This document shows positions 8,081 through 50,554 of a DNA stretch of 64,000 bases, piece after piece. This stretch comes from an uncultured Desulfobacteraceae bacterium (GTDB lineage Bacteria; Desulfobacterota; Desulfobacteria; Desulfobacterales; Desulfobacteraceae). The stretch spans positions 1-64,000 of the forward strand of contig CAJWHT010000002.1 of assembly GCA_913041495.1 (NCBI GenBank), read 5' to 3'. Position 1 is the stretch's first letter. Each line of letters opens with the position of its first letter. A program made the position numbers and the translations under genes. The notes under the pieces are model-generated. The model saw only the letters and a list, made by a program, of their open reading frames with translations, was not told the DNA's origin and searched no databases.

Positions 8081-8184
8081 GAATTCGCAGGCTTTCTTGA
8101 AAAGCACTTGATCCGCCGGGACCATTGATGCTAACTTTTCGTTGCAGTGCCGACCCCGATTTAATCAGCAAGGACATTCTTCTT

Positions 8185-9225
8185 ATGGCTTTTTTAAACG
8201 ATGTTGCATCCATTTTTTCATCCCCGAAATCTCTCATCACCACCATCGATTCACACACCGAAGGTGAGGCCACGCGTCTGATTGTGGATGGTGTCGGAGC
8301 GGTTCCCGGCGATACCATGTCTGATAAACTGGACTATTTCAAGGCACATTACGATTATGTCCGCTGTCTGACCACCAAGGAACCCCGAGGATCCAGGAGT
8401 ATCCTTGCGGCCATGGTCACCGAGGGGGTGACCCCGGGGGCGGCATTCGGGTTGATCTATATGGATGCCAAGCGGTATCCGTACCTCTGCGGCCATGCCA
8501 CCATCGGGGCGGTGGTCACCCTTGCCAGAACCGGTTTCCTGGAACTTGTTGAAGGGGAAAACCAGGTGCTGGTGGATACCCCTTCCGGCGTTATGGATGC
8601 AAGGGCCCAGGTTGTGAACGGCGAGGTGATCTCTGTGGCCATCAATATGGTGCCCGCCTTTGTCCATGACACGGACCGTGAAATTGAGGTGCCCGGGTAC
8701 GGGCGTATCGTGGTGGATCTGGTTTGCACCGGCGGATACTTTGCCATGGTGGACAGTGATCTTTTGGGGATATCCCCGGTGATGGACAACCGTAAACAAT
8801 TGGTGGACCTGGGGATGAAAATTATCGATGCGGCCAACGAGCAACTGACGGTAGTCCATCCCCTGCGGCCCGAGGTCAATACCATTGATGTCACGGAATT
8901 CCACACCTCAACCCATGACGGAGACGGCCATTGGGGACGAGGGGTGGTGGTCTACGGCGAATCCCATATGGACCGGTCCCCCTGCGGCACGGGAACAGCG
9001 GCCAAGCTGGCCCTTCTTTGCCACCGGGGGAAACTGGGGATGCACCAGGCCTACCGGAACTTAAGCCCCTTAGGTACCGCCTTTGACGCCGACGTGGTGG
9101 ACCAAACCGATATCGGCGGTAAAACAGCATATGTCGCACGGATTAAAGGCCGGGCATGGATCACCGGCCTTCACTATTTTTCCCTGGACCCCACCGATCC
9201 CTTTACGCAAGGATATATCGTATGA
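8185..9225 (+). CDS. Proline racemase / 4-hydroxyproline epimerase family protein
   Basis: DSHTEGEATRLIVDG; both catalytic Cys contexts present (YLCGHATIG and DRSPCGTGTAAK); start 8185 with AAGGA SD. Confidence 0.88.
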   Translation: MAFLNDVASIFSSPKSLITTIDSHTEGEATRLIVDGVGAVPGDTMSDKLDYFKAHYDYVRCLTTKEPRGSRSILAAMVTEGVTPGAAFGLIYMDAKRYPYLCGHATIGAVVTLARTGFLELVEGENQVLVDTPSGVMDARAQVVNGEVISVAINMVPAFVHDTDREIEVPGYGRIVVDLVCTGGYFAMVDSDLLGISPVMDNRKQLVDLGMKIIDAANEQLTVVHPLRPEVNTIDVTEFHTSTHDGDGHWGRGVVVYGESHMDRSPCGTGTAAKLALLCHRGKLGMHQAYRNLSPLGTAFDADVVDQTDIGGKTAYVARIKGRAWITGLHYFSLDPTDPFTQGYIV

Positions 9226-10838
9226 TGTCAGAACCCACACCCAAAATCATTTTGCACAACGGCAGACTTCACACCCTGGATCCTTTGCTGCCGTCGGCAA
9301 CGGCCCTGGCCGTCACAGGCAAACAGATCACGGCGGTGGGCGGCGATGCCGATATCCTTTCCATGGCCGGCCCCAAAACCCGGGTGATCAATCTGGACGG
9401 CCGGCTGGTGTTGCCGGGCCTGTGGGATACCCACTTTCATTTTTTTGAGTGGGCCAAAAACCTGGACAGCCTGGCCCTGGAAAAGGCAGATTCCTTCTCC
9501 CGGATGGAGGAGATGATCCGGGAACGGGCGTCCCGGGTGCCCGAGGGTACCTGGATCCTGGGACAGGGATTCAATGAATCGGAATGGCCGGAAAATCGGA
9601 TGCCGGACCGAAAGGATCTGGACCGTGCCGCCCCGGACCATCCGGTGTGTATCTGGCGGTGCGACTGCCATCTGGCCGTGGCCAATTCCAGGGCCCTTGA
9701 GGCTGCCGGCATCGGCAACGGATTTAAGGCCCCGGAAGGCGGGGTGGTGGTGACGGACGACAGAGGTGAACCCACCGGGGTGCTCAAGGAGCTGGCCATC
9801 AATCTTATATCGGCGCAGGTGCCGGCACTGACCCGGGCACAGCTCATGGACAACCTTGAAAAGGCTTCGGCCCGTGCCCACGCCCTGGGATTGACAGCCA
9901 TCCATGATGTCCGGCTCATGGGCGGTGAGGACGGTGCGGAATCCCTTTCCGTCTGGCAGCAGTTCCACCGGGCCGGCCGGCTGCAACTTCGCTGCCATGT
10001 GTCCCTGCCCGGGGAAACCGTTGAACAGGCCTGCCAGCTCGGACTCACCACCGGTTTCGGGGATGACACCCTGAGAATCGGCTGGGTAAAATTCTTTGCC
10101 GACGGCGGCATGGGTGCCAGGACCGGATGGATGACCGAACCCTATCTGGATGCGGACTTCGGCATGCCGCTGACCCCGGTGGAAGACATCCAGCGGGGGG
10201 TAACCATGGCTGACCGGGCCGGCCTGAGCTGCATGGTTCACGCTATCGGAGACCGGGCCTGCCGGGAAATGATCCAAATGTTCGCCCGTGTGGAGGCCGC
10301 AGGGCAGAGCAACTGCCATCTGCCCCACCGCCTGGAGCATATCCAAATGATCCTTCCCGAGGACCTGGACCGGATGGCCCGGCTGAAAAATCTTGCCGCC
10401 TCCTGCCAGCCCAACAACCTGAGCCTGGATATCTCCATGATCGACCAATGCGCAGGTGAGCGGGGTAAATTTGCCTACAGCCTCAAACCCATAATGGAAA
10501 CAGGGCTGCCCCTGATGCTCAACTCCGATGCCCCGGTGGCCGATCCCAACCCCTTTGCCGGTATCTATTCCGCGGTGAGCCGCAAGCGGATGAACCGGAC
10601 ACCGGCCGGCGGCTGGTACCCCGAACACCGGCTGACGGTGGAAGCCGCGCTTAAGGCCTATACCCTGACCCCGGCCCGGGTGTCGGGCTGCGGGGATATC
10701 CTAGGCTCACTGACCCCGGGCAAATACGCGGACATCGTGGTGGCGGACCGGGATATCTTCAGTGTTGATCCGGATACCCTGGCAGAAACCAAGGTCGATT
10801 TCACCCTGTTCGACGGAAACATCGTCCATGGATCCTGA
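9222..10838 (+). CDS. Amidohydrolase (YtcJ-like)
   Basis: LPGLWDTHFHFFEW, VHAIGDRACREM, HRLEHIQMI and LNSDAPVADPNPFAGIYSAVSR; ATGA overlap with the upstream gene. Confidence 0.88.
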   Translation: MMSEPTPKIILHNGRLHTLDPLLPSATALAVTGKQITAVGGDADILSMAGPKTRVINLDGRLVLPGLWDTHFHFFEWAKNLDSLALEKADSFSRMEEMIRERASRVPEGTWILGQGFNESEWPENRMPDRKDLDRAAPDHPVCIWRCDCHLAVANSRALEAAGIGNGFKAPEGGVVVTDDRGEPTGVLKELAINLISAQVPALTRAQLMDNLEKASARAHALGLTAIHDVRLMGGEDGAESLSVWQQFHRAGRLQLRCHVSLPGETVEQACQLGLTTGFGDDTLRIGWVKFFADGGMGARTGWMTEPYLDADFGMPLTPVEDIQRGVTMADRAGLSCMVHAIGDRACREMIQMFARVEAAGQSNCHLPHRLEHIQMILPEDLDRMARLKNLAASCQPNNLSLDISMIDQCAGERGKFAYSLKPIMETGLPLMLNSDAPVADPNPFAGIYSAVSRKRMNRTPAGGWYPEHRLTVEAALKAYTLTPARVSGCGDILGSLTPGKYADIVVADRDIFSVDPDTLAETKVDFTLFDGNIVHGS

Positions 10839-12225
10839 AACCTGCAAATACCTGGATGCCATCTTCAACCGGTCAGCGGACGGCCTGCTGATCTGCGATA
10901 GCCGGGGGCGGATTCTCCGGATGAACCGGGCGGCGGAACGCCTCAACGGGATCCGGGCGGATGACGTCCTGGGCCGTGATGTGAAAAGCCTGGTGGACGA
11001 AGGACAGATCAACCGGTCCGCCACCCAGGAGGTGCTGGAGACCCGCCGCCAGGTCAGCCTGGTGCAGAGTACCCCGAGATCCGGATACACCCTCCTGGTC
11101 ACGGGCACCCCGGTGTTTGACGAAAATGAAGATATCGCCTATGTGGTGGTCAACGAACGGGATATCTCTTTAATTGAAGACATGCGCCGGGAACTGGCCC
11201 AGGTCCGCCAGGCCTCGGAGAAAATGCGGGAGGAGCTTACCGGTCTCGCCCTGATGGAACTCAAGGAGAACAATATCGTCGCCCAGAGTTCCTCCATGAA
11301 GCTCACCGTGAACCTGGCCCTGAAGCTGGCGCGGATGGATGCCTCCAACATCCTTATTCAGGGAGAGTCCGGTACGGGCAAGGGCCTTTTGGCCAAATTC
11401 ATTCACCAAAACGGGGTTAGGGGAGATAAACCCTTTATCCAGATCAACTGCGCCGCCCTGCCGGAAAACCTGCTGGAGGCCGAGCTGTTCGGCTATGAGA
11501 AAGGGGCCTTTACCGGCGCACGGGAAAGCGGCAAGGCCGGGCTTTTCGAACTGGCGGACGGGGGAACCCTTTTTCTGGATGAAATCGGTGAACTCTCCCC
11601 CGGGGTACAGGCAAAGCTGTTAAAATACCTGGATGACCATGAGATCATGCCGGTGGGCGGCACCATGCCAAAAACCATCGACTGCACGATCCTGGCCGCC
11701 ACCAACCGGAACCTTGAACAGCATACCCGGACCAAGAAGTTCCGCCTGGACCTTTTTCACCGCCTCAACACCTTTACCCTCTCCATCCCCCCCTTGCGGG
11801 ACCGCCCCGAAGACATCCTGGAGCTTGTGGCCATCTGCCTGAAGCAGAACAACAAGCGGTACAAACGGCGGGCCTACATCGGGCACAAGGGATACGACGC
11901 CCTTAAATCCCATGCCTTTCCCGGCAACGTCAGGGAATTGATCAATCTCATCAAGCAGGCCGTGGTCATGTGCGACAGGCGCTTTCTCGACGACTATCTC
12001 ATCCGTTCCCTGCGTCCTCCGGCCCCGGTCCAGGCGGACGCGTCCCGGCCCCATGGGGAAAACACCTCCCTTCCCGATAAGCTTGCCGCCCTGGAACGGG
12101 ACCTTATGGCCGAGGCTGCCGGCCGTTGCCGCACCACACGGGAAGCGGCGGAATTCTTAGGTATCAGCCAGCCCACCGTGGTCAGGAAATTAAAAAAGTA
12201 CGGTCTTGAGTTGATTCAATCCTGA
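10828..12225 (+). CDS. Sigma-54-dependent transcriptional activator (PAS - AAA+ - TyrR/Fis-like HTH)
   Basis: GESGTGKG, GYEKGAFTGA and C-terminal TREAAEFLGISQPTVVRKLKKYGL; start 10828 inside the end of the previous gene. Confidence 0.92.
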   Translation: MDPETCKYLDAIFNRSADGLLICDSRGRILRMNRAAERLNGIRADDVLGRDVKSLVDEGQINRSATQEVLETRRQVSLVQSTPRSGYTLLVTGTPVFDENEDIAYVVVNERDISLIEDMRRELAQVRQASEKMREELTGLALMELKENNIVAQSSSMKLTVNLALKLARMDASNILIQGESGTGKGLLAKFIHQNGVRGDKPFIQINCAALPENLLEAELFGYEKGAFTGARESGKAGLFELADGGTLFLDEIGELSPGVQAKLLKYLDDHEIMPVGGTMPKTIDCTILAATNRNLEQHTRTKKFRLDLFHRLNTFTLSIPPLRDRPEDILELVAICLKQNNKRYKRRAYIGHKGYDALKSHAFPGNVRELINLIKQAVVMCDRRFLDDYLIRSLRPPAPVQADASRPHGENTSLPDKLAALERDLMAEAAGRCRTTREAAEFLGISQPTVVRKLKKYGLELIQS

Positions 12226-12418: not shown

Positions 12419-12434
12419 CGGCACGCCTCTTGTA
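12419..12434 (+). promoter_or_regulatory. Candidate sigma-54 promoter cGGCACGcctcTTGtA
   Basis: Matches TGGCACGN4TTGCA at 14 of 16 positions counting Ns; about 43 bp upstream of the ATG at 12477; preceded by a sigma54 activator gene. Confidence 0.5.
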
Positions 12435-12476: not shown

Positions 12477-13343
12477 ATGAAAGAAAAACCGTGGAAACCC
12501 TGGCTGTTGCTGTCACCGTCGCTGACAGCCGTCTTTTTGCTCCTCGTCGTTCCGGTCTGTTTTGTCGTGGTTTACTCATTCTGGCTCAGGGCCCCCAGCG
12601 GCCAGGATATACCGGCATTCCAGATGGGGAATTACGCCAAGTTTTTTGCGGATTTTTTCTATCCTTCCATTTTGCTGGATACCCTGAGGGTGGCCCTGGA
12701 AACCGTGATCCTCTGCCTGATAATGGGGTATGTCCCGGCCTATTTCTTTTACAGGACCGAGTCCCGGCTCAAACCCTACCTCATGCTGCTGGTGATGCTG
12801 CCGTTCTGGATCAGTTTTATCATACGGACCTTAAGCTGGATCAATATCCTGGGGGATTCCGGGCTGATCAACCACCTGCTCATGGAGGCCGGGTTCATCT
12901 CAAGTCCCATCGGCCTGCTGTACAACGAAGGGGCCGTGATCATGGGGCTGTTGCAGTATCTTTTGCCCTTTATGATCCTCAATATCTACGTGAGCCTGGA
13001 CGGAATCGACAAGAGTCTTACCGAGGCGGCCAAAAGCCTGGGATGCACGGAGTGGCAGGCCTTTCGGGAGGTGACGCTTCCCTTGAGTCTTCCCGGGGTG
13101 TCTGCCGGGTGTCTTCTGGTCTTCGTGCTGACCTGCGGTACCTATCTGCCCCCGATGATCCTGGGGGGACCCGGCAATGACATGATCGCCAACCTCATAT
13201 TCAAACGGGTCATCGGTACTCTGGACTGGCCTTTCGGATCGGCCATCTCCACCATCCTGCTGACCCTGCTGGTGATCATTGTCTATACCTACAACCGGTA
13301 CATGGGCATCAACCAGATCTTTAAAACCCTGAGCAAAGGATAG
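12477..13343 (+). CDS. Spermidine/putrescine-type ABC transporter permease (PotB-like)
   Basis: Multi-TM with EAAKSLGCTEWQAFREVTLPLSLPGV EAA loop. Confidence 0.88.
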   Translation: MKEKPWKPWLLLSPSLTAVFLLLVVPVCFVVVYSFWLRAPSGQDIPAFQMGNYAKFFADFFYPSILLDTLRVALETVILCLIMGYVPAYFFYRTESRLKPYLMLLVMLPFWISFIIRTLSWINILGDSGLINHLLMEAGFISSPIGLLYNEGAVIMGLLQYLLPFMILNIYVSLDGIDKSLTEAAKSLGCTEWQAFREVTLPLSLPGVSAGCLLVFVLTCGTYLPPMILGGPGNDMIANLIFKRVIGTLDWPFGSAISTILLTLLVIIVYTYNRYMGINQIFKTLSKG

Positions 13344-13352
13344 GACGGCGGC

Positions 13353-14150
13353 ATGAAACGCTTTATCTCCGGATGGACCCTGATCAAACTCTATACCCTC
13401 TTTGTATATATATGGATGTTCACCCCCATTGTGGCCGTGGTTATCCTGGCCTTCAACCCCCAGCAGTTCGGCTCTTTTCCCATGGAAGGGGTCAGTTTCA
13501 AGTGGTTTGTCAAGCTGTCCCATAATTCCACCATTTTAGACGCCTTCAAAAATTCCATGGTCCTAGGATCGCTGACCGCGGTGTTCTCAACGGCCATCGG
13601 GGTACCGGCAGCCATGGCTTTTATCCGTTACGACTTCAAGGGAAAAGATTTTTTAAATACCCTGCTCATCGCGCCCATCATGATTCCCGAGGTGGTGCTG
13701 GGGGTGGCCCTGCTCCTGTTTATCCGGTGGCTGCAGCAGCCCAAGAGTTTTGCCTTGCTGCTCATCGGCCACGTGGTTCTGACCCTGCCCTACGTCCTGC
13801 TCATCGTCCAGGCAAGGCTTGTGGGGATCAAAAGGGAATATGAGGAGGCGGCCATGTCCCTGGGGGCGAATCCTTTGCAGACTTTCAGGGAGGTCACCTT
13901 TCCCTTGCTGGCCCCGGCCATCTTTGCGGGGATGCTGTTTGCGTTCACCATTTCCTTTGACGATGTCACGGCCACCCTGTTCTGGGCCACGGCCCAGCAC
14001 CAGACCGTACCGGTGAAAATTTTTGGCATGCTCAGAAATTCCATCAGCCCGGAGATCAACGCCCTGGGGGCTGTGATGATCGTATTGACGGTATCTATCC
14101 CGCTGGCTGCGGGGTATTTGTCCCGGCGGTTCGCCAGAGGCAGCGCATAA
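13353..14150 (+). CDS. Spermidine/putrescine-type ABC transporter permease (PotC-like)
   Basis: EEAAMSLGANPLQTFREVTFPLLAPAIFAGMLFAFTISFDD motif. Confidence 0.88.
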   Translation: MKRFISGWTLIKLYTLFVYIWMFTPIVAVVILAFNPQQFGSFPMEGVSFKWFVKLSHNSTILDAFKNSMVLGSLTAVFSTAIGVPAAMAFIRYDFKGKDFLNTLLIAPIMIPEVVLGVALLLFIRWLQQPKSFALLLIGHVVLTLPYVLLIVQARLVGIKREYEEAAMSLGANPLQTFREVTFPLLAPAIFAGMLFAFTISFDDVTATLFWATAQHQTVPVKIFGMLRNSISPEINALGAVMIVLTVSIPLAAGYLSRRFARGSA

Positions 14151-14260: not shown

Positions 14261-15421
14261 ATGGCAAAAGACGTGGAAAAAAGACTGGATGATGTACAGG
14301 ACGCGTACAGGCAGGGAGATATTTCCCGCAGGGATTTTGTAAAGTTCGCAGGCATGGCTGGTGCGGCCCTGGGAATCATGGGCGGACCCTTCGGCCTGGT
14401 CCGGCAGGCCCTGGCCGGCAGTAAATCCATTACCTGCCACTCCTGGGGTGGTTCCACCTCAGAAGCCCTGCGACAGTTTGCCTTTGATCCCTTTACCAAA
14501 TCCTCAGGCATCAAGGTGGTCGATGCCGCCTTCACCGGCATGGATGCCTTTTTAACCCAGGTCAAAGCCTCCTATCCCCCCGGAGGGGAGTTCAACATCG
14601 CCCATCTGTCTGCGGTATACGACTATGCCAGGTATACGGACCTGGGATTCGGTGTGGAACTGGACGAGTCCAAGATTCCCAACCTGAAAAACGTCATGAC
14701 CAAGATGACCGATACCCTAAAGGGCATCTCCGGCGGAAAACTGTCTGCCGCCCCCTATGATCTGGGACAGACCGGCATTGCTTACAACACGGATAAGATC
14801 TCAAAGGAGAAGGCCGAAAAGCTAGGGGCCTCCCTGCTCTATGACAAGAGCCTCAAGGGAAAACTGGGTTCCTGGAGCGGTGATTTCAGGACCAATATGT
14901 GGTACGCGGCCCTGCACACCGGACAGAATCCCAATAATATCAAGGATGAGGGGGCGGTATGGGATGCCCTTAAAACCCAGCGTAAACTGATCAAAAAATA
15001 CTGGGCATCCGGGTCCGAACTCATGAGCCTGTTGGGCAACGGTGAGATTTACGCCACAGTGGCCTGGTCCGGCCGGGTTGCCGCACTCCAGAAACAGGGA
15101 CACCCCATTGGCTATCTGTCGCCGGACGGCACCTACTCCTGGATGGAATACATGTACGTGCTCAAGGGCACGGATCTTGACGTGGCCCAGAAACTGCTGA
15201 ACTTCATGCTGGAACCCGAAGCGGCCATTGCCGTGGCCAAGGGCCAGAATTATCCGCCCTCACTGGATCCCACCAAGGTACCCATGCCTGAGGAAGTGCA
15301 GAAGCTTCCGGCCTTTGATCCCACAGGCAAACTGGACGGTTACCTGTTTGCGGATCCCGCCTATTGGAACAGCCACCAGCTGGACTGGGCGGAAAAATGG
15401 GATCGGGTCATGGCCGGCTAA
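14261..15421 (+). CDS. Polyamine-type ABC transporter substrate-binding protein with Tat-like signal
   Basis: SRRDFVKFAGMAGAALG signal; PotD-like body. Confidence 0.85.
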   Translation: MAKDVEKRLDDVQDAYRQGDISRRDFVKFAGMAGAALGIMGGPFGLVRQALAGSKSITCHSWGGSTSEALRQFAFDPFTKSSGIKVVDAAFTGMDAFLTQVKASYPPGGEFNIAHLSAVYDYARYTDLGFGVELDESKIPNLKNVMTKMTDTLKGISGGKLSAAPYDLGQTGIAYNTDKISKEKAEKLGASLLYDKSLKGKLGSWSGDFRTNMWYAALHTGQNPNNIKDEGAVWDALKTQRKLIKKYWASGSELMSLLGNGEIYATVAWSGRVAALQKQGHPIGYLSPDGTYSWMEYMYVLKGTDLDVAQKLLNFMLEPEAAIAVAKGQNYPPSLDPTKVPMPEEVQKLPAFDPTGKLDGYLFADPAYWNSHQLDWAEKWDRVMAG

Positions 15422-15506: not shown

Positions 15507-16604
15507 TTGGCACAGGATAAGAATCCGGCATTCGTCCGGTTCAAAAATATTGAAAAGCGGTTCGGGAAGGTAACGGCAGTGGCCCAGATGGACCTTGATA
15601 TCCCCGAAGGGGCGCTTGTGACCCTCCTGGGGCCGTCGGGCTGCGGCAAGACCACCCTGCTTCGGATGCTGGCAGGCCTTGAGACCCCGACATCCGGGGA
15701 TATCTACATCAAGGACAAGCGGATCAACGATACACCGGTACACCGGCGGAATCTTGGCATGATCTTTCAGAATTACGCCCTGTTTCCCCATAAAACCATA
15801 TTTGACAATGTGGCTTTCGGCCTGAAGTATCGGGGATTTTCCAGGGATGAGATGACCACCCGGGTGGAAAAGGCCCTGGAAACCGTCCGGCTGCCCGGGG
15901 TGGCCGACCGGATGCCCTCCCAGCTTTCCGGCGGCCAGCAGCAGCGGATCGCCCTGGCCCGTGCCATTGTCATCGAGCCCGACGTTCTGCTCATGGACGA
16001 ACCCCTGTCCGCCCTGGATGAAAACCTAAGAGAAGACATGCGACGGGAAATTGACAACCTCCAGCAGGTCTTGGGGGTCACCACTATTTTCGTTACCCAT
16101 GACCAGCGGGAGGCCCTGTCCATGTCGGACAAGGTGGTGGTCATGAAAGACGGCATTGTCCAGCAGGAAGGGGACCCGGAAGAGGTGTATAACAATTCTG
16201 CCAATCATTTCGTGGCGGATTTTCTGGGCCATTCCAACTTCATTGACGCCAGGGTGGAGGCGAAAGAAAACGGGTATCTGACCGTCAGCCTGGCCGGCGG
16301 CAGCTCCGTCAGGGTTAATCCTGCAGGCCCATTTGCACCCGGGGACAGGGCAGAGATCGTCATCCGGGCCCAGAAAATGACCCTGGGTTTCCGGGAGGAC
16401 CTGTCCCGTGAACCTGAAATGAACTATTTCACGGGCAAAATCGTTGACCGCAGTTATATGGGCGGAGAAGTCAGCTATTTTGTGGAACTGCCCACCGGCA
16501 AAGTACTCCATGTGATCAATTTTGTTAAACGCTCTCCCTACCGCCGGGGCGATGAAGTGTTCATCCAGGTGGACCCGTATCACTGCAGGCTCCTGGGCGA
16601 CTGA
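15507..16604 (+). CDS. Polyamine-type ABC transporter ATP-binding protein (PotA-like)
   Basis: GPSGCGKTT, LSGGQQQRIALARA and LLMDEPLSALD; TTG start. Confidence 0.92.
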   Translation: MAQDKNPAFVRFKNIEKRFGKVTAVAQMDLDIPEGALVTLLGPSGCGKTTLLRMLAGLETPTSGDIYIKDKRINDTPVHRRNLGMIFQNYALFPHKTIFDNVAFGLKYRGFSRDEMTTRVEKALETVRLPGVADRMPSQLSGGQQQRIALARAIVIEPDVLLMDEPLSALDENLREDMRREIDNLQQVLGVTTIFVTHDQREALSMSDKVVVMKDGIVQQEGDPEEVYNNSANHFVADFLGHSNFIDARVEAKENGYLTVSLAGGSSVRVNPAGPFAPGDRAEIVIRAQKMTLGFREDLSREPEMNYFTGKIVDRSYMGGEVSYFVELPTGKVLHVINFVKRSPYRRGDEVFIQVDPYHCRLLGD

Positions 16605-16623: not shown

Positions 16624-16950
16624 ATGGATTCCTTCCCTGCCAATCAAGGTCCGGTGGAACAAAGTTTTTCCTGGATCAAACGGGGGTTGGATCCCACCCA
16701 GAGCTATATCATTTTCGAACATGATCTGAAGCACCGGGGCGAATCCATTTTCGATCCCTCACACCGGATCTACGCCTTTTTGAAGGAAAAAAAGATGGGG
16801 TGGCAGCAGGTGGTGGATATGGATCTTGCCACGGAATACCTGGTGGTTCAGGTCCCGGCCGGCAAAGAGGATGCCGTGCTGGGCAAAATACTGGGGTTCG
16901 GGTTTTCCGAACATATTGTTTTTTACATATTCAAGGCAGAAGAGGTGTAA
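16624..16950 (+). CDS. Small hypothetical protein encoded immediately upstream of the KamA-like gene
   Basis: Start MDSFPANQG at 16624; tight spacing with both neighbours. Confidence 0.6.
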   Translation: MDSFPANQGPVEQSFSWIKRGLDPTQSYIIFEHDLKHRGESIFDPSHRIYAFLKEKKMGWQQVVDMDLATEYLVVQVPAGKEDAVLGKILGFGFSEHIVFYIFKAEEV

Positions 16951-16952
16951 TT

Positions 16953-19421
16953 GTGACAGAGTCCAACACAACCATCCGGGCGGATTTCAAGTATTCCGGC
17001 ATACTGGTGGAAATCCCATTGGCACAGCTTGCCGGCGCGGCTGTTGAGTTTTTAACCGTTTACGGGAACGCGCAGTTCTGCGGCAGGGCCTTTACGGATG
17101 TTCTGGGCGGCAGCAGCGAAAGTGGCAATAAAAAATTTGCCGCCCTGCTTTCAGCCGCGGGATTTGACAATGATCCGGCCGGATTTTTCAGGGCTGTCCT
17201 GAATGCCATCGGGGAGGACCGGGGAGAAAATCTTGTCCTCAACGGCGTCCGGCTGCCGTCCAGGTTTCTGGTAGCCCTGCTGGAAGAGGTGCTTCCGGGC
17301 CACGGCTACGTGTCCATAAAGGATACAAAACAGTTGGTGCAGGCCACCAACCTGAATATTCCCGACGGCCAGCAGAATGATCTTCAGGCCGTTATTGAAC
17401 GGTATCCGGTGCGCCTTTCCCGTCACACCATAAGGCAGATGATGGTGTCCAGGGATGTGGCTTACCAATACCTGCCCTTTGTGGAGGAGCTTGGGTCCAT
17501 CGGCCACACCAACACCTGGATCGGCCAGTTCCATGACGGCCTTCTGGAGCAGATGTACCAGAACCGGGTCATCTTTCTTTTGAACATGAGCTGTCCCGTG
17601 TACTGCAGGTTCTGCTTCAGAAAGCACAAGGATGCCCGAAACGAGCCCAACCCCACACCGGAAGACGTGGCCCGTGCGGTTCTCCATGTCAAGAACTCCC
17701 CCCGGGTCAAAGAGGTGGTGATCACAGGCGGCGATCCTTTCATGAACCGGAAGAACATGGCCGCCACCATCGACGGGTTGATGACGGTGGACCATGTCCG
17801 GACCCTGCGCCTGGCCACCCGGTCCGTGGCCTATTACCCGGACCTGTTTCTGGAAAAAGAGGGGGCATACCTCAACTACCTCAAACAAAAGAGTTTTGAA
17901 CTTCAGCAGCACGGTAAGCGCATGGAGCTGGCCACCCATTTTATCCATCCGGACGAGGTGTCGCCGGAAAGCCTTGAGATCATCTCCGATCTGGTGAAAT
18001 CCGGCATCGCCGTATATATCCAGACCCCGTTTCTTGCGGACTGCAACGATACCGGCCCCGAACTGGCCCGGCTATTTAGTCTGTTGCGGGGTGCCGGTGC
18101 CGAACTTCATTATATCTATATCCCCTGCAGCCCCATCCACGGAAACTCAGTGTATTGGAAGCCCTTGTCCGATGGTATTGATACGGCCAACCACCTTCGG
18201 GCCCACCTGTCCGACCGGGTGATCCCCAGGATCTGCACTGCCACCCCAATTGGGAAAATGGACTGGTTCACCAGCGGCTGGGCCGTGGAACGGGTGGCGG
18301 AAAACGAAAATTTCATCTGGATCCGGACCCCTTATACCCCGGATTATTTCAAGGCCTTTGCCCCCCTGGCCAATGAATTGACCAACATCCGGGTCAACGA
18401 TGAGGGCACCATCGATATCCAGTATATGGCCAAGATCGGCAACGAGGACTATCTTATCGGACACCGCCCTGAGAGGCAGAGTGCACGGAATCCTTCGGCT
18501 TCGGATCAGGAGATCAAAAGGCTGCAAACGTCCCTGGCACAAGTACCCCAGACCGGGGCTTCCATTGTAAAAACCGGCCTGGACAATCTGGACCGGCTCC
18601 ATATGACCCGGGTGCGTTTAGGCTTTGATGCCAAAGGCCAGGAACTGGACTATATCCGGGGGGATCACCGGATCACCGATGTGGTGCTGGCAGGGGACGG
18701 GGATGTGAAGGAGAGCCTCCACGACGTCTGCCGTCTGGTGACAGCCCTCAAAGATATTTCACACGTTACGGCCGTACGGATACAGTCTGCGGCGTTCGTA
18801 CAGTCCCCAGCGGATTATTCCCGTGCCGTGATCAATACCCTGGGCGATCTCAACGCCCTGTCGGTTGTCGGCCCCCAGCGGCTGGAGATTGAAACCTGGG
18901 CCCTGCAGGCCGGTGACATCAGCGATGATCACGCCGTACTCACCCGTCGCCTGAATAACCGGGGGATCACCGTGTATGTCAATGTACCGCTCCTGGGAGG
19001 GGTGAATGATTCGGCCGATGCCATCCACGACATGGCCCATGCCTTGCGTACCGCCGGCATGGAATTCCACCACCTCTATGTGGCCGGCACCCCGCTGCAG
19101 TCAGTGTGGAACCATGATTTCCCCGTGGACTCCTGGGATGTTACGGATATTGCCACCAAGGTTCGACGGGAAGGCTCGGGCCGGGAAATTCCCAGGTATA
19201 TCATCGCCACACCGTTGGGCGAGGTGGACTACGGACTGACCAGTACCTTCATCAGGGAGGGGGACCGTTTGAAATTAAGACTGAGTTGCTACGACAAATC
19301 CTATTTTGACAGCATAGATGAAAAGGCAGGACTGGCAGATGAGGTGAGCTTTGATGAGAGCGGCTGTCCTGTGACCGTGGTCCGTGGGTTGATCAAAACC
19401 AATGATTTCCCGGTATCCTGA
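16953..19421 (+). CDS. KamA-like radical SAM protein with tandem (active plus degenerate) halves
   Basis: GTG start 16953; CPVYCRFCFRKH (CxxxCxxC, 17592-17615), EVVITGGDPFMN; C-terminal half aligns to the N-terminal half but lacks the Cys motif. Confidence 0.82.
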   Translation: MTESNTTIRADFKYSGILVEIPLAQLAGAAVEFLTVYGNAQFCGRAFTDVLGGSSESGNKKFAALLSAAGFDNDPAGFFRAVLNAIGEDRGENLVLNGVRLPSRFLVALLEEVLPGHGYVSIKDTKQLVQATNLNIPDGQQNDLQAVIERYPVRLSRHTIRQMMVSRDVAYQYLPFVEELGSIGHTNTWIGQFHDGLLEQMYQNRVIFLLNMSCPVYCRFCFRKHKDARNEPNPTPEDVARAVLHVKNSPRVKEVVITGGDPFMNRKNMAATIDGLMTVDHVRTLRLATRSVAYYPDLFLEKEGAYLNYLKQKSFELQQHGKRMELATHFIHPDEVSPESLEIISDLVKSGIAVYIQTPFLADCNDTGPELARLFSLLRGAGAELHYIYIPCSPIHGNSVYWKPLSDGIDTANHLRAHLSDRVIPRICTATPIGKMDWFTSGWAVERVAENENFIWIRTPYTPDYFKAFAPLANELTNIRVNDEGTIDIQYMAKIGNEDYLIGHRPERQSARNPSASDQEIKRLQTSLAQVPQTGASIVKTGLDNLDRLHMTRVRLGFDAKGQELDYIRGDHRITDVVLAGDGDVKESLHDVCRLVTALKDISHVTAVRIQSAAFVQSPADYSRAVINTLGDLNALSVVGPQRLEIETWALQAGDISDDHAVLTRRLNNRGITVYVNVPLLGGVNDSADAIHDMAHALRTAGMEFHHLYVAGTPLQSVWNHDFPVDSWDVTDIATKVRREGSGREIPRYIIATPLGEVDYGLTSTFIREGDRLKLRLSCYDKSYFDSIDEKAGLADEVSFDESGCPVTVVRGLIKTNDFPVS

Positions 19422-19456
19422 CAGGAATATCGGGTCATCCAAAACGGTGGTTTATT

Positions 19457-19508
19457 CTCAATGGCATGGAACATTCCCTTGCCACGGGTGAACTGCCTTA
19501 TGTGCAGG
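19457..19508 (-). pseudogene. Fragment of formate dehydrogenase alpha-subunit gene
   Basis: 52 bp, 48 identities to 21839-21890 inside fdhA (27-bp perfect run); translates as LHIRQFTRGKGMFHAIE versus LHTMQFTRGKGMFHAIE. Confidence 0.8.
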
Positions 19509-20442
19509 GTTGGGTGGAGCGGTGCGCCATGGGAGACCTGCGGACAAGCATCTGGGCCAGGTGTTGCACCTCCCGGGAAACATCCCGGTCCAGGCGTTTG
19601 CACCAGGCTTTGGGAAAAGCTGGGCCCCCGTATAGGGGGCCGGCAATCATTCCGGCAATGGCCCCGGTCGTATCGGCATCCCCCCCCTGATTGACCACCC
19701 CCACCAGGCAGCTTTCAAAATCATTCGAGTTAAACAGATGGTGAAATACGGTTTTGATGGTGTCTACCACGTAAGCACTGCTGTGGCCGTTGTAAGGCTC
19801 AAAGGAAAACTTAGGGTGACGGCGGATCAGATCCTCCGCGAGTGTTCGCAGCTGGGCTATGGACGCCCCCAGTATCGCCGCCTGAACCATGCTGCCAACG
19901 GCGATGCATGCCGCATCCGATAGGGTATGGTGATGGGTGATGTGTGCCTGTTGCGTTGCATATGCGTTTAAACGGGCCTGGTCCCCCAGCGTATAAATTG
20001 CAACGGGAACGATCCGCATGACGGCGCCGTTACCAGCATCCCATTCATTATAGGGCATCTGCGTTGTTCCTTTGTGGATATACGTGCGCAAACCGCGGGC
20101 GCAGGTGGCGCCGATGTCTTTGGGGCGCTTCTGCATCCATTTGACAAAGTAATCCGCCACCGAGGTCAAATCCCATCCATCCACGTCAATCACCGCCCGG
20201 GCCATATGGATGGACATCTCCGTATCATCGGTCACTTCCCCGGGGGACAGGCGCAGCCATCCGCCACCGATCATCTTTTTGTGAACCCCGTATTTTGACT
20301 TGATTTCATGGGGCGTCATGAATTCTGTCGTTGCCCCCAGGGCATCGCCCAGAGCCACTCCCAGAAAAGCCGCCTGGGCATTGGATTCTATCTGTTCCCA
20401 ACTCAATTGCGGAAGCTGTCCCGACAGCAGCCCAAGATCCAT
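19498..20442 (-). CDS. draG: ADP-ribosyl-[dinitrogen reductase] glycohydrolase (DraG)
   Basis: AAFLGVALGDALGA, TDDTEMSIHMARAV and GGDADTTGAIAGM; partnered with draT. Confidence 0.88.
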   Translation of the reverse strand: MDLGLLSGQLPQLSWEQIESNAQAAFLGVALGDALGATTEFMTPHEIKSKYGVHKKMIGGGWLRLSPGEVTDDTEMSIHMARAVIDVDGWDLTSVADYFVKWMQKRPKDIGATCARGLRTYIHKGTTQMPYNEWDAGNGAVMRIVPVAIYTLGDQARLNAYATQQAHITHHHTLSDAACIAVGSMVQAAILGASIAQLRTLAEDLIRRHPKFSFEPYNGHSSAYVVDTIKTVFHHLFNSNDFESCLVGVVNQGGDADTTGAIAGMIAGPLYGGPAFPKAWCKRLDRDVSREVQHLAQMLVRRSPMAHRSTQPCT

Positions 20443-20451
20443 ACTTGCTCC

Positions 20452-21249
20452 TTAGTAATAGCGCAGTTTGCCCAGGTATTCTCCACCGATCACCAGCACT
20501 TCTTCCTCACCCTGCAGAATACTTGAATGTAAAAAAGATCCGTCAAAAAAAATTTTAGGCACCGGAACATCCACTTCAATAACCTGGGTGCCGAACTCCC
20601 AGGCCCGTTCAAAATCCCGGGTAAATGAGTTGAGATTGTTAAGCCGCAGCACAATCTTGTCCGGTTCTATCCGCTCCAGCACATCATGTCCATCCAGATC
20701 GTAAATGCCCCGGTAAAGGGTGATATGGGTACATTGGGGATCTCTGCGTTTCAATTCATACTGGACAAATTCGTATAAAAGGTCCAATTGGGAAAAAATG
20801 GCGTTGGTCCGGGCCATTGCATTGAGGCGCTGCCCCATATAATCCGCATAGGCCTCATCCCTGCGGCTGGCAATGGGGCCGTTGTGGTAGGTGGGGGGGA
20901 TGCCAAGCCTTTTTTCAACCCATCCTTTCAAAACAGCGCCTTCCGGCGAATCGGAGTTAAAAAGCCATCCCCGAAGGAAACGCAGATAACTGTGTTTAAG
21001 GCTCAATTTCCCGGTGGGGTCATTTTCCCTGCGCCACTGTGTCAGGCAGAAGGCCACCTCCATGTAGTCCTCATAGCAGTTGGCGCGTTCAGCCCAGGTA
21101 TCCAGGTTCGCCAGACGGCGGAAAAAATGCCGGTGGGTCTGTCGGATCCCCTGAATATGCAATGGCTTAGGGGAAGCGTTGAATTCCCGGGAGACAATTT
21201 TCCAGGGCGGCAGGTTGCACCGGTTGGAGAGTGGGGGGTCTTGGTTCAT
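20452..21249 (-). CDS. draT: NAD+-dinitrogen-reductase ADP-D-ribosyltransferase (DraT)
   Basis: RCNLPPWKIVSREFNASPKPLHIQGIRQ...ITLYRGIYDLDGHDVL; directly upstream of draG. Confidence 0.85.
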   Translation of the reverse strand: MNQDPPLSNRCNLPPWKIVSREFNASPKPLHIQGIRQTHRHFFRRLANLDTWAERANCYEDYMEVAFCLTQWRRENDPTGKLSLKHSYLRFLRGWLFNSDSPEGAVLKGWVEKRLGIPPTYHNGPIASRRDEAYADYMGQRLNAMARTNAIFSQLDLLYEFVQYELKRRDPQCTHITLYRGIYDLDGHDVLERIEPDKIVLRLNNLNSFTRDFERAWEFGTQVIEVDVPVPKIFFDGSFLHSSILQGEEEVLVIGGEYLGKLRYY

Positions 21250-21451: not shown

Positions 21452-24220
21452 TTAGGCCTTGGCCGCCTCAATGTTGATGGCGCAGACTTTGAACTCCGGA
21501 ATTTTGGCCGTGGGGTCAAGTTCTGCGTTGGTCAGCTTGTTGGCTGCGGCGTTGGCAAAGTGGAAGGGAATGAAGATGGTGCCTTCCACGGCTTTGTCGG
21601 ACACCTGCAGCTTGGCCTTTATCCTGCCGCGCCTGGAGCAGACGTTGACCATCTCGCCGTCCCCGATACCAAGGCGGGTGGCGTCGGCATCGGAAATCTC
21701 CACGAAGCATTCCGGGGACAGCATGTTAAGGCCGTCGGTGCGCATGGTCATGGTGCCGGTGTGGTAATGGTAAAGGACCCGGCCTGTGGTCAGGATAAAC
21801 GGGTATCTGTCGTCGGGCAGTTCTGCCGGGGGCACATGCTCAATGGCATGGAACATTCCCTTGCCCCGGGTGAACTGCATGGTGTGCAGGATGGGGGTGC
21901 CGGGGTGTTCCGTGTCCGGGCAGGGCCAGTGGATGCCGACCTCGTCGATACGTTCCCAGGTGATGCCCCGGTATGAGGGGGTCACAGCGCTTATTTCCTT
22001 GAAGAGCTCATGACTGTCCTCATAGGAGAAACCGTATCCCATGCGGTTGGCGATGTCACACAAAATTTCCCAATCCCGTTTCGGGCCTTCGGGGGGCTCG
22101 ACGGCGCGCCGGACTCTTTGGACCCTGCGTTCGGAGTTGGTGAAGGTGCCGTTTTTCTCTGCCCAGCAGTAGGAGGGCAGGACCACATCGGCCATGGCCG
22201 TGGTCTCGGTTTCGAAAATATCCTGAACCACCAGGAATTCCAGGTTGTTCAGGGCCTTCTTGGCATGGTTGAGATCCGGATCGGAAACCATGGGGTTCTC
22301 ACCGATGATGAAAAGGGATTTCATCTCTCCTTCATAGGCCTTGTTGAACATTTCGGTGGCCACAAGTCCCGGGGTGGGGGACATGCCTTTCACCTGCCAC
22401 GCCTTTTCATACCCCTCCCGGGCATCGTCCGATGTCACGGGCTGGTAAGCGGTAAGGACGTTGGGAAGCCCTCCCATGTCACAGGCGCCCTGGACGTTGT
22501 TCTGGCCGCGCAGGGGGTTCACGCCGCCGCCCGGTTTGCCCAGGTGGCCGCAGAGCATGGAAAGGTTGGCCAGGGATTTGACGTTATCCGTGCCGCAGGT
22601 ATGCTGGGTGATGCCCATGCAGTAGCAGATGGTGCCGGCCCCTGCATTGGCAAAGTCACGGGCCACCTGGCGAAGATCGTCCGCCGGGATACCGGTGAGT
22701 TTTTCAACATGTTCGGGGGTATACTTTTCAACGACGGCCTTTGTGGCTTCAAAATTTTCACATCGGTCGTCGATGAACTTCTGGTCCTGAAGGCCTTCTG
22801 AGATGATTACATTCATCAGGCCGTTGATCCAGGCAATGTCTGTCCCGGGCATGGGACGCAGCCATTTTTCTGCATGGTCGGCCAGTTTCACACGTCTTGG
22901 GTCGATCAGGTAAAGCTTTTTACCCTGTAGCACCGCCCGCTTCATAAAGGTGGAGAGGACAGGGTGGTTTTCCGTGGTGTTGGAGCCCGTGACGAGAATG
23001 ACGTCCGACTCTTCGATATCTGCAATGGTGTTCGTCATTGCGCCGCTTCCGAATGCTGCAGCCAGACCGGCTACGGTGGAGCTATGTCACAATCGGGCGC
23101 AATGGTCGATGTTGTTGGTCTTCAACACCCCCCGGGTGAACTTCATGGCCATGTAGTTGTCTTCGTTGGTAACCCGGGCGGAGGTGAGTAAGCCCATGGC
23201 ATCGGCCCCGTGTTCCTTACCGATGGCTTCGAACTTTTCCGCCACAAGATCCAGGGCTTCGTCCCAGGTGGCAGGTACCTGCTTGCCGTCCTTTTTGATC
23301 AAAGGAGTGGTCAGGCGGTTGGGGGAGGCGACAAAGTCAAAGCCGTATCTGCCTTTCACACAGAGGCTGGCGTTGTTGGGGGGCAGATCCTGGTCCGCAC
23401 CGTCGATCTTGACAATCTTGTTGTCCTGGACAAACACGTCCATCTGGCATCCCACGCCGCAGTAAGAGCAGGTGGTCCGGGTCACTTTGGTGGGTTTGAA
23501 CCTGTCGTCCCTAAATTCACGGTCCGGGATGAGCGCCCCTACAGGGCAGACCTGGACACATTCACCGCAGAATACGCAGTCCGAATCTTTCAGGTGGGCG
23601 TCATCTCCGGCAATGATTTTCATTTCTTCGCCGTGGTAGCCGAACTCAATGGCGTTGTTTACCTGGATTTCCCGGCAGGCCTTGATACATTTGCCGCAGA
23701 GGATGCACCGGGAGAAATCTCTGATAATGAAGGGGTTGGCCCGTTCGGTTTCATGCTTGCATGCAGTGACGGGCATGCCTGTGGCCTTGACCTGGTAGCG
23801 GTAGGTGAGATCCTGAAGATCGCAGTCCCCCCATACCGGACAAAGGTCCTGTTTCCCGTCTGCCGCAAGCACGTTGAGCTGGAAGGCGGTCCAGTCTTCC
23901 GTGGGCAGATCGCGGATGGCGCAGTTATGATTTCCCGTGGCGAGCATGGCGGCCAGAATCTCTTTTCGGGCGGCCACAACTTTGGGGGATTCGGATTGAA
24001 TCACCATGCCTGGCTCAGCCTTGGTCACACAGGACTCCACAAGTTCATCCTTGCCGGCGATTTCCACAAGGCAGACGCGGCAGGTGTTGGTGGGTATGGT
24101 GTGTTTGAGATGGCAGAGCGTGGGAATTTCGATGTTGTTCCTGGCGGCCACATCAAGGATGGTCTCCCCAGGTTCAAATGTCAGCTGGTTCTCGTTGAGC
24201 GTTATAATATTGGTATCCAT
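21452..24220 (-). CDS. fdhA: Selenocysteine-containing formate dehydrogenase alpha subunit (2Fe2S/4Fe4S N-terminal modules), Sec at TGA 23087-23089
   Basis: ORFs 23087-24220 and 21452-23038 are in one frame across TGA; read-through gives [27 protein letters not shown], the FDH Sec motif. Confidence 0.93.
23058..23089 (-). promoter_or_regulatory. Bacterial SECIS element
   Basis: UGA then 12 nt then GUAGCC-GGUCU-GGCUGC: 6-bp stem with GGUCU apical loop, as in fdhF-type SECIS. Confidence 0.85.
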
Positions 24221-47551: not shown

Positions 47552-50500
47552 TTAGACCTTTCCGTCTCTTTTTGTCTTTTTCGTTTCTGATTTTTTTTCA
47601 TTTAGTTTTTCTTCGATAAGGGGAATCAGGGTTTCCATGGCCATACCCCTTGAGCCCTTGAGCAGCAGCCATTGCTGGGAGGCAAGCCGGTCTGCCAGAT
47701 CTGCTGCAATCTCTTCTTTGGTGCCGTGAAGTATCCGGTCTTCGGGATAGCCTGCCTCAACCGCCCCGGTTTTCAGGTGGGCGGTCTGGGTACCGAAGAG
47801 GTAGAGTTTTGCCGGCCGGGTTTCTGCCGCAAGCCGCCCCATGTCCCGGTGGAGCTGATCGGAATCCGGCCCCAGTTCCAGCATGTCGCCTAAAGCGGCG
47901 AGGCCGTTGTCGATGCCTGCCATGCGGCTCAGGGTTTTAAGGGCCTGGCCCATGGATGCCGGGTTGGCGTTGTAGGTGTCATCAATGAGATGGGTGCCGT
48001 CGGAAAGTTTCCCTAAGTTCATGCGGCCCTTCACCGGGGTAAACCGGGAAAGCCCTGTTCGGATATCTTCGTAGCCGATGCCTGCGGCCCTTGCTGCGGC
48101 TGCGGCTGCCGCCGCGTTGTTGGCCATGAAAAGGGCCGGGGTGTTGATGGTAACCGTTTCACCCCTGTCCCCTTCCCTAATAGAGAAGGTCAGTCCCCTG
48201 CCGGAGGTGGTGATGTCTTCAATACGGATGTCCGCATCTGCATTGCTGCCGAAGGTGCGGAGGTTCGTGATGGCAGGGTTGGACCGGGCAAGTTCTTCCA
48301 TGATGGTCCGGCGCGGATCATCGGCAAAGATCAGGGCGGTACCGCCTTCTTTTACCCCTTCAAAGATTTCCGATTTGGCCCGGGCCACGTTATCGGCGGT
48401 TTTAAGGCCTTCCAGATGTGCCCCTGAGGTGTTGGTGACCAGGGCAATATCCGGACGGGCAATGGCCGTCAGCCGTGAGAGTTCACCAAAGTGGTTCATG
48501 CCCATCTCAATGACGGCCCATTGATGGACCGGGGCCAGTTTCAACAGGGTCTGCGGCATGCCGATCTCATTGTTGAAGTTGCCTTGGGTGGCCAGGGTAT
48601 CGAATCGCGTGGTAAATATTTCCCGGGCCATCTTCCGGGTGGTGGTTTTCCCATTTGAACCGGTAATGGCCACCAGGCGGACACCTGTGCGGTCTTTATG
48701 GAATGCGGCCAGCTTTCCCAGGGCCGCCAGGGTATCGTTGGTTTCAAAAATCAGAATCTTGTTCTTGATGATCCTGTTTTTGGTCAGTCCGTCCAGGGTT
48801 CCCAGGAAACCGGTTTTAACCACAAAGGCCCGGATGCCCTTGTCTATCAGATTCGGCACAAAGTCATGGCCGTTGAAATTTTCCCCTTCAAGGGCCAGGA
48901 AAACCATGTCCGGTTCGATGGTTCTGGAGTCGGTGCCGATGGTGGTGAACCGGAGTTTTTCATCTTCTGCCGGTACTTTGGAAGTCGTGTCCAGTGCCTG
49001 GGCAAGATCCGTCACAGACCAGTCCGTGGGGGTGAGCAGGCGGTTGCAGGCCTGCTCCAGGTGTTCCATGTCATCGAAGTGGATGGTGCCGTTGTTGGTG
49101 ATCTGGTAGGTCTCATGGCCCTTGCCGGCGGCCACGATGATATCCTGGGGGCCGGAGATCCGGACCGCCAGGTCCAGAGCCTTTGCCCGGTCCACCTCGC
49201 GGATGTATCCGGTTTGACCTGCTTTAATTGTCTCCGGGTCCAGTTCGGCAATTGCGTCTTCACGGATGCCTGTGATGATGTCATCCACAATGGCATCCGG
49301 ATCTTCGGTTCTGGGGTTATCCGAGGTGACAATGGCAATGTCTGAATAGTGGCAGGCAAACTTGCCCATGGGGGCGCGTTTGGTCTTGTCCTGGTCGCCG
49401 CCGCAGCCAAACACGGTGATGAGCCTTGCCGGTGCCCTGCCGGACAGGGTCCGGAGGATGGATGCCAGTGCGTCCGGCGTATGGGCATAATCAACAAATA
49501 TGTGGCGGTTCAGGGGGGTGTCCAGTTTTTCCAGACGTCCGGGTACCCGGGTGAGCCTGTCGATGCCCCGGACAATCTCGTCCGGTGCCAACCCCAGGGC
49601 AAACGCTGCACCTGCGGCACAGAGGATGTTTTCCAGGTTAAACCGGCCGGTAAGGGCAGAGTTCAACTGCAGGCGTGCGCCTTTAAAATCCAGGGTGCCG
49701 CAAAGACCTGTGATGTCATCTTTTATCCCGGTGGCCGTGATATCTGTTTTTTCTGTGTGGCTGACCCTTATCACAGGTGTTTCAAGGGTGTCTGCCAGCC
49801 GTTTCCCGTATCCGTCATCCACATTGATGACGGAAGGGGTCTTCGGTCCGAGATAGTCGGTGAACAGCCGCTGCTTGCTGCCGAAGTATTCCTCCATGGT
49901 GTTGTGGTAATCCAGGTGGTCCTGGGAGAGGTTGGTGAACACTGCGGCATCAAATTCGCAGCCGTCCACCCGGAACTGGTCCAGGCTGTGGGAGGAGACT
50001 TCCATGAGCACATGGGAAACTCCCGCAGCTTTCATTTCAGACAATGTGCGCTGCAGGGAAACGGCATCCGGTGTGGTGATGGGGTTATCCAGGGTTTTGC
50101 CGGGATACCGGATGTTGACGGTGCCGATGACCCCGACCGCCTGTCCTGCGGCTTTAAAAATACTTTCCAGTATCCATGTGATGGTTGTTTTTCCGTTGGT
50201 GCCGGTGATGCCCACCAGGGTCAATTCTTTGGACGGATGGCCGTAGAAGGTGGATGCGATGGCTGCCGTGGCCTTGCGGCTGTCCGTTACCAGGATGATT
50301 CTTTTTGCATCTTCTGCAGCGAGATCGCAAGGTATATGCTCTGCGATGACCGCTGCAGCACCTTTTTCAAGGCTTTGCCGGATGTAGGAATGGCCGTCGG
50401 CCGCATGGCCTGTCACGGCGATGAAAAGGGAACCTGAAGCAACTTGCCGGGAATCACAGGTGACCGAGGTAATTTCGGCGGTTTTTAACCTTTCCGGAAT

Positions 50501-50554
50501 ACCGGAACCGTTCTTTGCCATGGGGACATCGTTGATCAGATCTGCAACTATCAT
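47552..50554 (-). CDS. MurE-MurF fusion (two Mur ligases in one 1000-aa ORF)
   Basis: MurE half: GITGTNGKTT and TSDNPRTEDP (meso-DAP motif DNPR); MurF half: TTIGTDSRTIEPDMVF, ITGSNGKTTT and DDTYNANPASM. Confidence 0.93.
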   Translation of the reverse strand: MIVADLINDVPMAKNGSGIPERLKTAEITSVTCDSRQVASGSLFIAVTGHAADGHSYIRQSLEKGAAAVIAEHIPCDLAAEDAKRIILVTDSRKATAAIASTFYGHPSKELTLVGITGTNGKTTITWILESIFKAAGQAVGVIGTVNIRYPGKTLDNPITTPDAVSLQRTLSEMKAAGVSHVLMEVSSHSLDQFRVDGCEFDAAVFTNLSQDHLDYHNTMEEYFGSKQRLFTDYLGPKTPSVINVDDGYGKRLADTLETPVIRVSHTEKTDITATGIKDDITGLCGTLDFKGARLQLNSALTGRFNLENILCAAGAAFALGLAPDEIVRGIDRLTRVPGRLEKLDTPLNRHIFVDYAHTPDALASILRTLSGRAPARLITVFGCGGDQDKTKRAPMGKFACHYSDIAIVTSDNPRTEDPDAIVDDIITGIREDAIAELDPETIKAGQTGYIREVDRAKALDLAVRISGPQDIIVAAGKGHETYQITNNGTIHFDDMEHLEQACNRLLTPTDWSVTDLAQALDTTSKVPAEDEKLRFTTIGTDSRTIEPDMVFLALEGENFNGHDFVPNLIDKGIRAFVVKTGFLGTLDGLTKNRIIKNKILIFETNDTLAALGKLAAFHKDRTGVRLVAITGSNGKTTTRKMAREIFTTRFDTLATQGNFNNEIGMPQTLLKLAPVHQWAVIEMGMNHFGELSRLTAIARPDIALVTNTSGAHLEGLKTADNVARAKSEIFEGVKEGGTALIFADDPRRTIMEELARSNPAITNLRTFGSNADADIRIEDITTSGRGLTFSIREGDRGETVTINTPALFMANNAAAAAAAARAAGIGYEDIRTGLSRFTPVKGRMNLGKLSDGTHLIDDTYNANPASMGQALKTLSRMAGIDNGLAALGDMLELGPDSDQLHRDMGRLAAETRPAKLYLFGTQTAHLKTGAVEAGYPEDRILHGTKEEIAADLADRLASQQWLLLKGSRGMAMETLIPLIEEKLNEKKSETKKTKRDGKV

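What the first reader, a model, noticed from the sequence alone, without database searches (positions are those of the whole stretch)
16953..19421. KamA-like radical SAM protein with an active N-half and a degenerate C-terminal pseudo-half
Seen: the first half carries CPVYCRFC (17592-17615) and ATPIGKMDW (K codon 18255-18257). The second half repeats the same landmarks in order: KEVVITGGDPFMNR / TDVVLAGDGDVKES; HVRTLRLATRSVAYYP / HVTAVRIQSAAFVQSP; SGIAVYIQTPFLADCNDTGPELARLFSLLRGAGAELHYIYIPCSPIHGNSVY / RGITVYVNVPLLGGVNDSADAIHDMAHALRTAGMEFHHLYVAGTPLQSVW; RVIPRICTATPIGKMDW / REIPRYIIATPLGEVDYG. It has no CxxxCxxC, and Glu (19221-19223) sits at the position of that Lys. Established: lysine 2,3-aminomutases use the Cys triad for 4Fe-4S/SAM and a conserved Lys near this region for PLP. 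Inference: an ancient internal duplication gave a pseudo-heterodimer in one chain, with the C-half structural or regulatory.
Basis: partly seen in the sequence, partly recalled or inferred. Interest (0 to 1): 0.8.

Follow-up and report, generated by a model that had tools for sequence, protein, structure and literature searches.

The report
Radical enzyme with disabled twin domain
This gene of a marine sulfate-reducing bacterium encodes a radical SAM (KamA-type) enzyme that carries, in the same chain, a second copy of itself that has lost its catalytic metal site and cofactor lysine but has been kept under selection in dozens of genera, so it is a new, testable case of an enzyme that keeps a dead twin.

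Summary
ORF 16953-19421 (822 aa, GTG start) holds two KamA-like cores. Residues 119-500 keep CPVYCRFC, GGD, HFxHPxE and K435. Residues 509-822 match the same KamA models on their own (E 4.5e-13), fold as a LAM-like barrel (Foldseek top hit 2a5h, E 1.3e-12) and align to the first half (BLASTP E 5e-20; hhalign 99.7%). The Cys loop is missing outright in the C-half, and E (rarely D) replaces the PLP lysine in all 51 full-length relatives checked. The double protein occurs in 85 of 390 genomes of its order, in two paralogous lines. On a tree the two halves group together apart from 39 single-domain KamA proteins (100/99), so an internal duplication predating the two lines is the best reading. The C-half is under purifying selection (dN/dS about 0.12-0.23). 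The usual context is a sigma-54-promoted import operon: proline-racemase-like gene, amidohydrolase, PotABCD-type transporter, small unknown protein, this gene, M23-fold protein (missing here). I read it as a PLP/radical-SAM aminomutase-like enzyme acting on an imported amino acid, probably not lysine, with a cluster-less pseudo-KamA partner fused on. Substrate, N-C contact and any C-half ligand remain unshown.

The parts
16953..19421 (+). Double KamA-like protein, 822 aa, GTG start
16953..17306 (+). N-terminal extension, residues 1-118, no family match, fast evolving
17307..18452 (+). N-half, residues 119-500, KamA-like radical SAM core
   Evidence: TIGR00238 E 6.9e-31, TIGR03822 E 8.2e-30; 2a5h E 7.8e-20
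17592..17615 (+). CPVYCRFC (C214, C218, C221), 4Fe-4S/SAM motif
   Evidence: one CxxxCxxC in each of 51 full-length relatives
17727..17735 (+). GGD (259-261), SAM-binding motif of the N-half
   Evidence: invariant in 25 relatives; GGE in most of the second paralogous line
18255..18257 (+). K435, predicted PLP Schiff-base lysine (ATPIGK)
   Evidence: 25 of 25 relatives; same register as the GK of single-domain KamA proteins
18477..19421 (+). C-half, residues 509-822, cluster-less pseudo-KamA barrel
18594..18638 (+). Residues 548-562, stretch where the Cys loop of the N-half is missing
19161..19199 (+). VRREGSGREIPRY (737-749), most conserved C-half motif
19221..19223 (+). E757 at the position of K435; E or D in all relatives
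16624..16950 (+). Small protein of unknown family (108 aa) ending 2 bases before the KamA start; relatives of it found in 19 of the loci compared
15507..16604 (+). PotA-like ABC ATPase
14261..15421 (+). PotD-like Tat-exported solute-binding protein
13353..14150 (+). PotC-like permease
12477..13343 (+). PotB-like permease
12419..12434 (+). Sigma-54 promoter-like site CGGCACGCCTCTTGTA; weak alone, but similar sites lie upstream of potB in most relatives that carry the sigma-54 regulator
10762..12225 (+). PAS / sigma-54 activator
9156..10838 (+). Amidohydro_3 hydrolase
8125..9225 (+). Proline racemase / hydroxyproline epimerase superfamily, both catalytic Cys motifs (CGH, SPCGTGT) present

Best explanation
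A KamA-family (radical SAM + PLP) aminomutase-like enzyme whose gene duplicated internally. The N-half would bind the 4Fe-4S cluster, SAM and PLP, and shift an amino group on an amino acid taken up by the neighbouring PotABCD-type importer; the substrate is probably not free lysine. The C-half lost the cluster loop, the SAM motif and the PLP lysine, and now serves as a fused pseudo-partner that stands where a second subunit would sit and shapes or regulates the N-half, possibly by binding a ligand of its own. Shown: two halves, fold, universal losses, conservation, operon; well supported: duplication. Inferred: catalysis, substrate class, pairing of the halves, role of the C-half.
For: N-half keeps CxxxCxxC, GGD, HFxHPxE, the Arg at LAM R134 and the PLP Lys, all invariant. 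Both halves match LAM by sequence and the model's top fold match is LAM. N+C form one group against 39 single-domain KamA proteins, 100/99. The C-half lacks a Cys triad and has E/D for K in 51 of 51 relatives, yet is under purifying selection (dN/dS 0.12-0.23 in seven pairs; N-half 0.05-0.12). 85 of 390 order genomes hold it, with no standalone half found. Conserved import/catabolic operon, sigma-54 promoter.
Against: No structure with cofactors and no biochemistry. The protein falls below the curated cut-offs of every KamA model. The first strand and Cys loop of the N-half are the least confident part of the model. The interface between the halves was not examined. The substrate is not identified. 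Invariant polar residues of the C-half could mean a job of its own.
Confidence: 0.55

Rival explanations
1. The C-half is a re-purposed TIM barrel with a new active site or a dedicated ligand pocket (acid/base residues in place of Fe-S and PLP), so the protein is bifunctional rather than enzyme plus dead partner.
For: Polar residues H550, R553, R609, E645, Y675, N677, N685, H706, H707, Q716, R738, S742, R744, T753, D759 are invariant in both paralogous lines; several lie on or at the ends of predicted barrel strands; E/D at 757 is universal.
Against: Many of these are shared with the N-half and so may be scaffold; the C-half evolves about twice as fast as the N-half; no known catalytic signature was found.
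Confidence: 0.25
2. The C-half is only a structural filler that replaces a subunit contact and stabilises the N-half.
For: Loss of every cofactor motif; retained scaffold residues; no standalone half seen.
Against: Strong conservation of the VRREGSGREIPRY and FHH motifs across lines about 45% identical is more than a filler needs.
Confidence: 0.15
3. The halves are two KamA genes of different subfamilies fused together, not an internal duplication.
For: The C-half branch is long, and rows with long branches can join falsely.
Against: N and C group apart from all sampled single-domain KamA proteins at 100/99 and share residues such as R422/R744 and the TxxG(K/E) context.
Confidence: 0.1

Closest known systems
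Lysine 2,3-aminomutase (AblA/KamA, PDB 2a5h)
   Same: Barrel fold, CxxxCxxC, Arg at R134, Asp at D293, PLP Lys; both halves hit it
   Different: 822 aa with a second cluster-less core; Asp330 is Ala; scores far below the family cut-off (136 of 525 bits)
Single-domain KamA proteins with a short GK context such as SHASGKIEI (L033/L106) and ATNIGK (L126-L129)
   Same: Lys sits in the same short GK context as ATPIGK
   Different: One domain, no fused pseudo-half, separate clades on the tree
FbiC (CofG-CofH fusion), from own knowledge
   Same: Two radical SAM-type barrels in one chain
   Different: There both domains keep a Cys motif and are active; here the second has none
Pseudoenzyme partners such as LCB1 of serine palmitoyltransferase or Dph2 of the Dph1-Dph2 pair, from own knowledge
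   Same: Paralogous partner without full catalytic equipment that is nevertheless needed
   Different: Separate chains and other folds or cofactors; here the partner is fused

Membership tests
KamA-family radical SAM protein (TIGR00238) | CxxxCxxC cluster motif | tested here: met
   N-half, one motif in 51 of 51 relatives; absent from the C-half
KamA-family radical SAM protein (TIGR00238) | PLP lysine after the last barrel strand | tested here: met
   K435 by alignment, invariant; PLP binding itself not tested; E757 in the C-half
KamA-family radical SAM protein (TIGR00238) | Curated score of 199.2 bits | tested here: not met
   149.2 bits for the whole protein, 107.4 for the N-half
Lysine 2,3-aminomutase (TIGR03820) | Asp293 and Asp330 for the side-chain amine | tested here: not met
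   D366 present, but A430 at Asp330, invariant; residue roles from own knowledge of the LAM structure
Lysine 2,3-aminomutase (TIGR03820) | Curated score of 525.4 bits | tested here: not met
   136.4 bits
Radical SAM aminomutase (function) | Reductive SAM cleavage and PLP-dependent amino shift | not testable with these tools
   needs anaerobic purification and assay
Tandem radical SAM enzymes (FbiC type) | Cluster motif in both domains | tested here: not met
   C-half has none in 51 relatives
Pseudoenzyme domain | Homologous fold, catalytic residues lost, kept by selection | tested here: met

The most novel reading that the evidence does not exclude
The C-half is a KamA barrel converted, after losing its Fe-S, SAM and PLP sites, into a new ligand-sensing or catalytic domain that works in cis with the radical enzyme, in an undescribed import-and-degradation pathway of marine sulfate reducers.
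Probability: 0.25. Interest if true: 0.75.

Novelty: new variant of a known kind. Interest (0 to 1): 0.56.

Why it matters
I found no description of a radical SAM enzyme fused to a cluster-less copy of itself in the literature that I could search. The architecture is widespread in sediment sulfate reducers, tied to a defined operon, and its halves can be cut, mutated and assayed separately. It would show whether a radical SAM barrel can become a useful pseudoenzyme, and it points to an uncharacterised amino acid degradation pathway in marine sediments.

Tried and rejected
A split-gene version (L138, G484) turned out to be a run of N inside the gene. A 3142-aa 'fusion' (L103) is also a run of N. 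The 1223-aa ORF in L107 carries an ordinary single KamA core at its C-terminal end behind a long Pro/Gly-rich stretch that looks like out-of-frame reading. A 730-800 aa KamA family in the same bacteria has one core with CGGLCSSC and no second half. No plasmid record covers 80% of the query. Paper searches gave no description of this protein or operon. A link to hydroxylysine breakdown, suggested by the M23 domain shared with kinase-M23-phospholyase fusions, could not be supported. The sigma-54 pattern is no more frequent in the window than chance; only its position and recurrence in relatives support it.

Full report
What is there. The ORF at 16953-19421 encodes 822 aa. The mechanical ORF starts at 16800, but relatives begin at the GTG at 16953, and AGAAGAGG lies a few bases upstream, overlapping the end of a small gene that stops at 16950.

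Two halves. Residues 1-500 hit KamA-family models (TIGR00238 E 6.9e-31; TIGR03822 E 8.2e-30) and residues 501-822 hit the same models on their own (TIGR03822 E 4.5e-13). PDB sequence searches find lysine 2,3-aminomutase 2a5h with each half, and a C-half profile finds it at E 1.1e-13. The halves align with each other at 25% identity, E 5e-20, and 99.7% probability by profile comparison. AlphaFold2 on 25 relatives gave pLDDT 78.8 and pTM 0.82 for the whole protein, with the C-half mostly above 90; the C-half alone gave pLDDT 88.6. Foldseek puts 2a5h first for both (E 8.6e-11; E 1.3e-12, TM 0.61 by query length).

What was kept and lost. In the N-half C214, C218, C221, R223, GGD 259-261, H329, N365, D366 and K435 are invariant in 25 relatives. 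R223 aligns with LAM R134, D366 with D293 and A430 with D330; the roles of these LAM residues are from my own knowledge, because the structure paper is not held. K435 sits in a TPIGK context two residues shorter than LAM PGGGGK, but in the same register as the SHASGK and ATNIGK contexts of single-domain KamA proteins. In the C-half the loop is gone: predicted strand 553-557 is followed directly by helix 562-570, where the N-half has about 24 residues between strand and helix. MAFFT and hhalign instead place this segment opposite RKHKDARN, so the exact break is unresolved; under either alignment no Cys triad remains. GGD is variable, HFxHP is gone, and E or D stands for the lysine. Each of 51 distinct full-length relatives has one CxxxCxxC, and the C-half position is E in 48 and D in 3, by reading the printed motifs (the C-half pattern of that script did not match, so the motifs were read by eye).

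Conservation and origin. The double protein was found in 29 loci of the species-level collection, all from records titled as Desulfobacteraceae-type genera, Desulfopila, Desulfuromusa or unclassified Delta/Proteobacteria, in 52 of 86 genomes of the family and 85 of 390 of the order, 40 of 150 genera. A thin phylum-wide draw outside the family gave only single-domain KamA matches. Two paralogous lines exist; the window's genome carries both (C2 and C52, 46% identical). A tree of 69 rows separates N-halves, C-halves and 39 single-domain proteins, with N+C against the rest at 100/99; both lines share the split, so the duplication is older than they are. The C-half branch is long, so this is support and not proof. 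Pairwise dN/dS is 0.12-0.23 for the C-half and 0.05-0.12 for the N-half in seven pairs with usable dS: weaker constraint on the C-half, but clearly not decay. Twenty-eight C-half residues are invariant in both lines, many of them polar.

Context. Among the loci compared, a PotA-type ATPase accompanies the gene in 26, the solute-binding protein in 23, an M23-fold protein in 22, the small protein in 19, a sigma-54 activator in 16 and an amidohydrolase in 15, with many loci cut by contig ends. In L023, L024 and L029 the KamA and M23 genes lie divergent from an IclR-type regulator and the transporter genes, so the link survives a change of regulator. A -24/-12-like site recurs upstream of potB in most loci with the sigma-54 activator and is less clear in the IclR-type loci. 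The window lacks the M23 gene; the best match in its genome is the central domain of a 1003-aa kinase-M23-aminotransferase fusion. The second paralog has variable surroundings.

Mechanism. The most likely reading is a PLP and radical SAM aminomutase-type reaction in the N-half on an imported amino acid, with the C-half as a fused, cluster-less partner. LAM itself is an oligomer (own knowledge), so a pseudo-subunit in cis is plausible, but no interface was measured. The invariant polar set of the C-half leaves room for a ligand pocket or a new activity (25%).

Verdict. The finding is real, conserved and, as far as I could search, undescribed. It is a new variant of a known kind: KamA fold and chemistry are known, the fused pseudo-KamA half is new to me.

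Noticed in passing
19454-19514: A 61-base stretch between the KamA stop and the next gene is 88.5% identical to 21836-21896 inside the fdhA-like gene; it lies where most relatives have the M23 gene and may mark a local rearrangement that removed it.
   Followed up: partly
19498-21249: ADP-ribosylglycohydrolase and DRAT (dinitrogenase reductase ADP-ribosyltransferase) pair, as used to switch nitrogenase, next to formate-dehydrogenase-like genes.
   Followed up: no
47552-50554: A 1000-aa ORF carries two Mur ligase middle and C-terminal domains (fusion of two Mur ligases, MurE-MurF-like) within a cell-wall gene cluster.
   Followed up: no
L152:2514-5525: In the window's genome a kinase-M23-aminotransferase fusion (PRK06148) lies beside a BCCT-type transporter-like gene and an aldehyde-dehydrogenase-like gene; its M23 domain is the closest genomic match to the operon's M23 protein.
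   Followed up: partly
L018:9086-11017: Downstream of the double KamA operon, a single-domain KamA-like gene sits next to a histidine-racemase/DapF-like gene and two ABC transporters.
   Followed up: no
L141:7010-9196, L142:7569-9809: A separate KamA-related family of about 730-800 aa with CGGLCSSC and a long N-terminal region, next to a glutamine-synthetase-like gene, of unknown function.
   Followed up: partly
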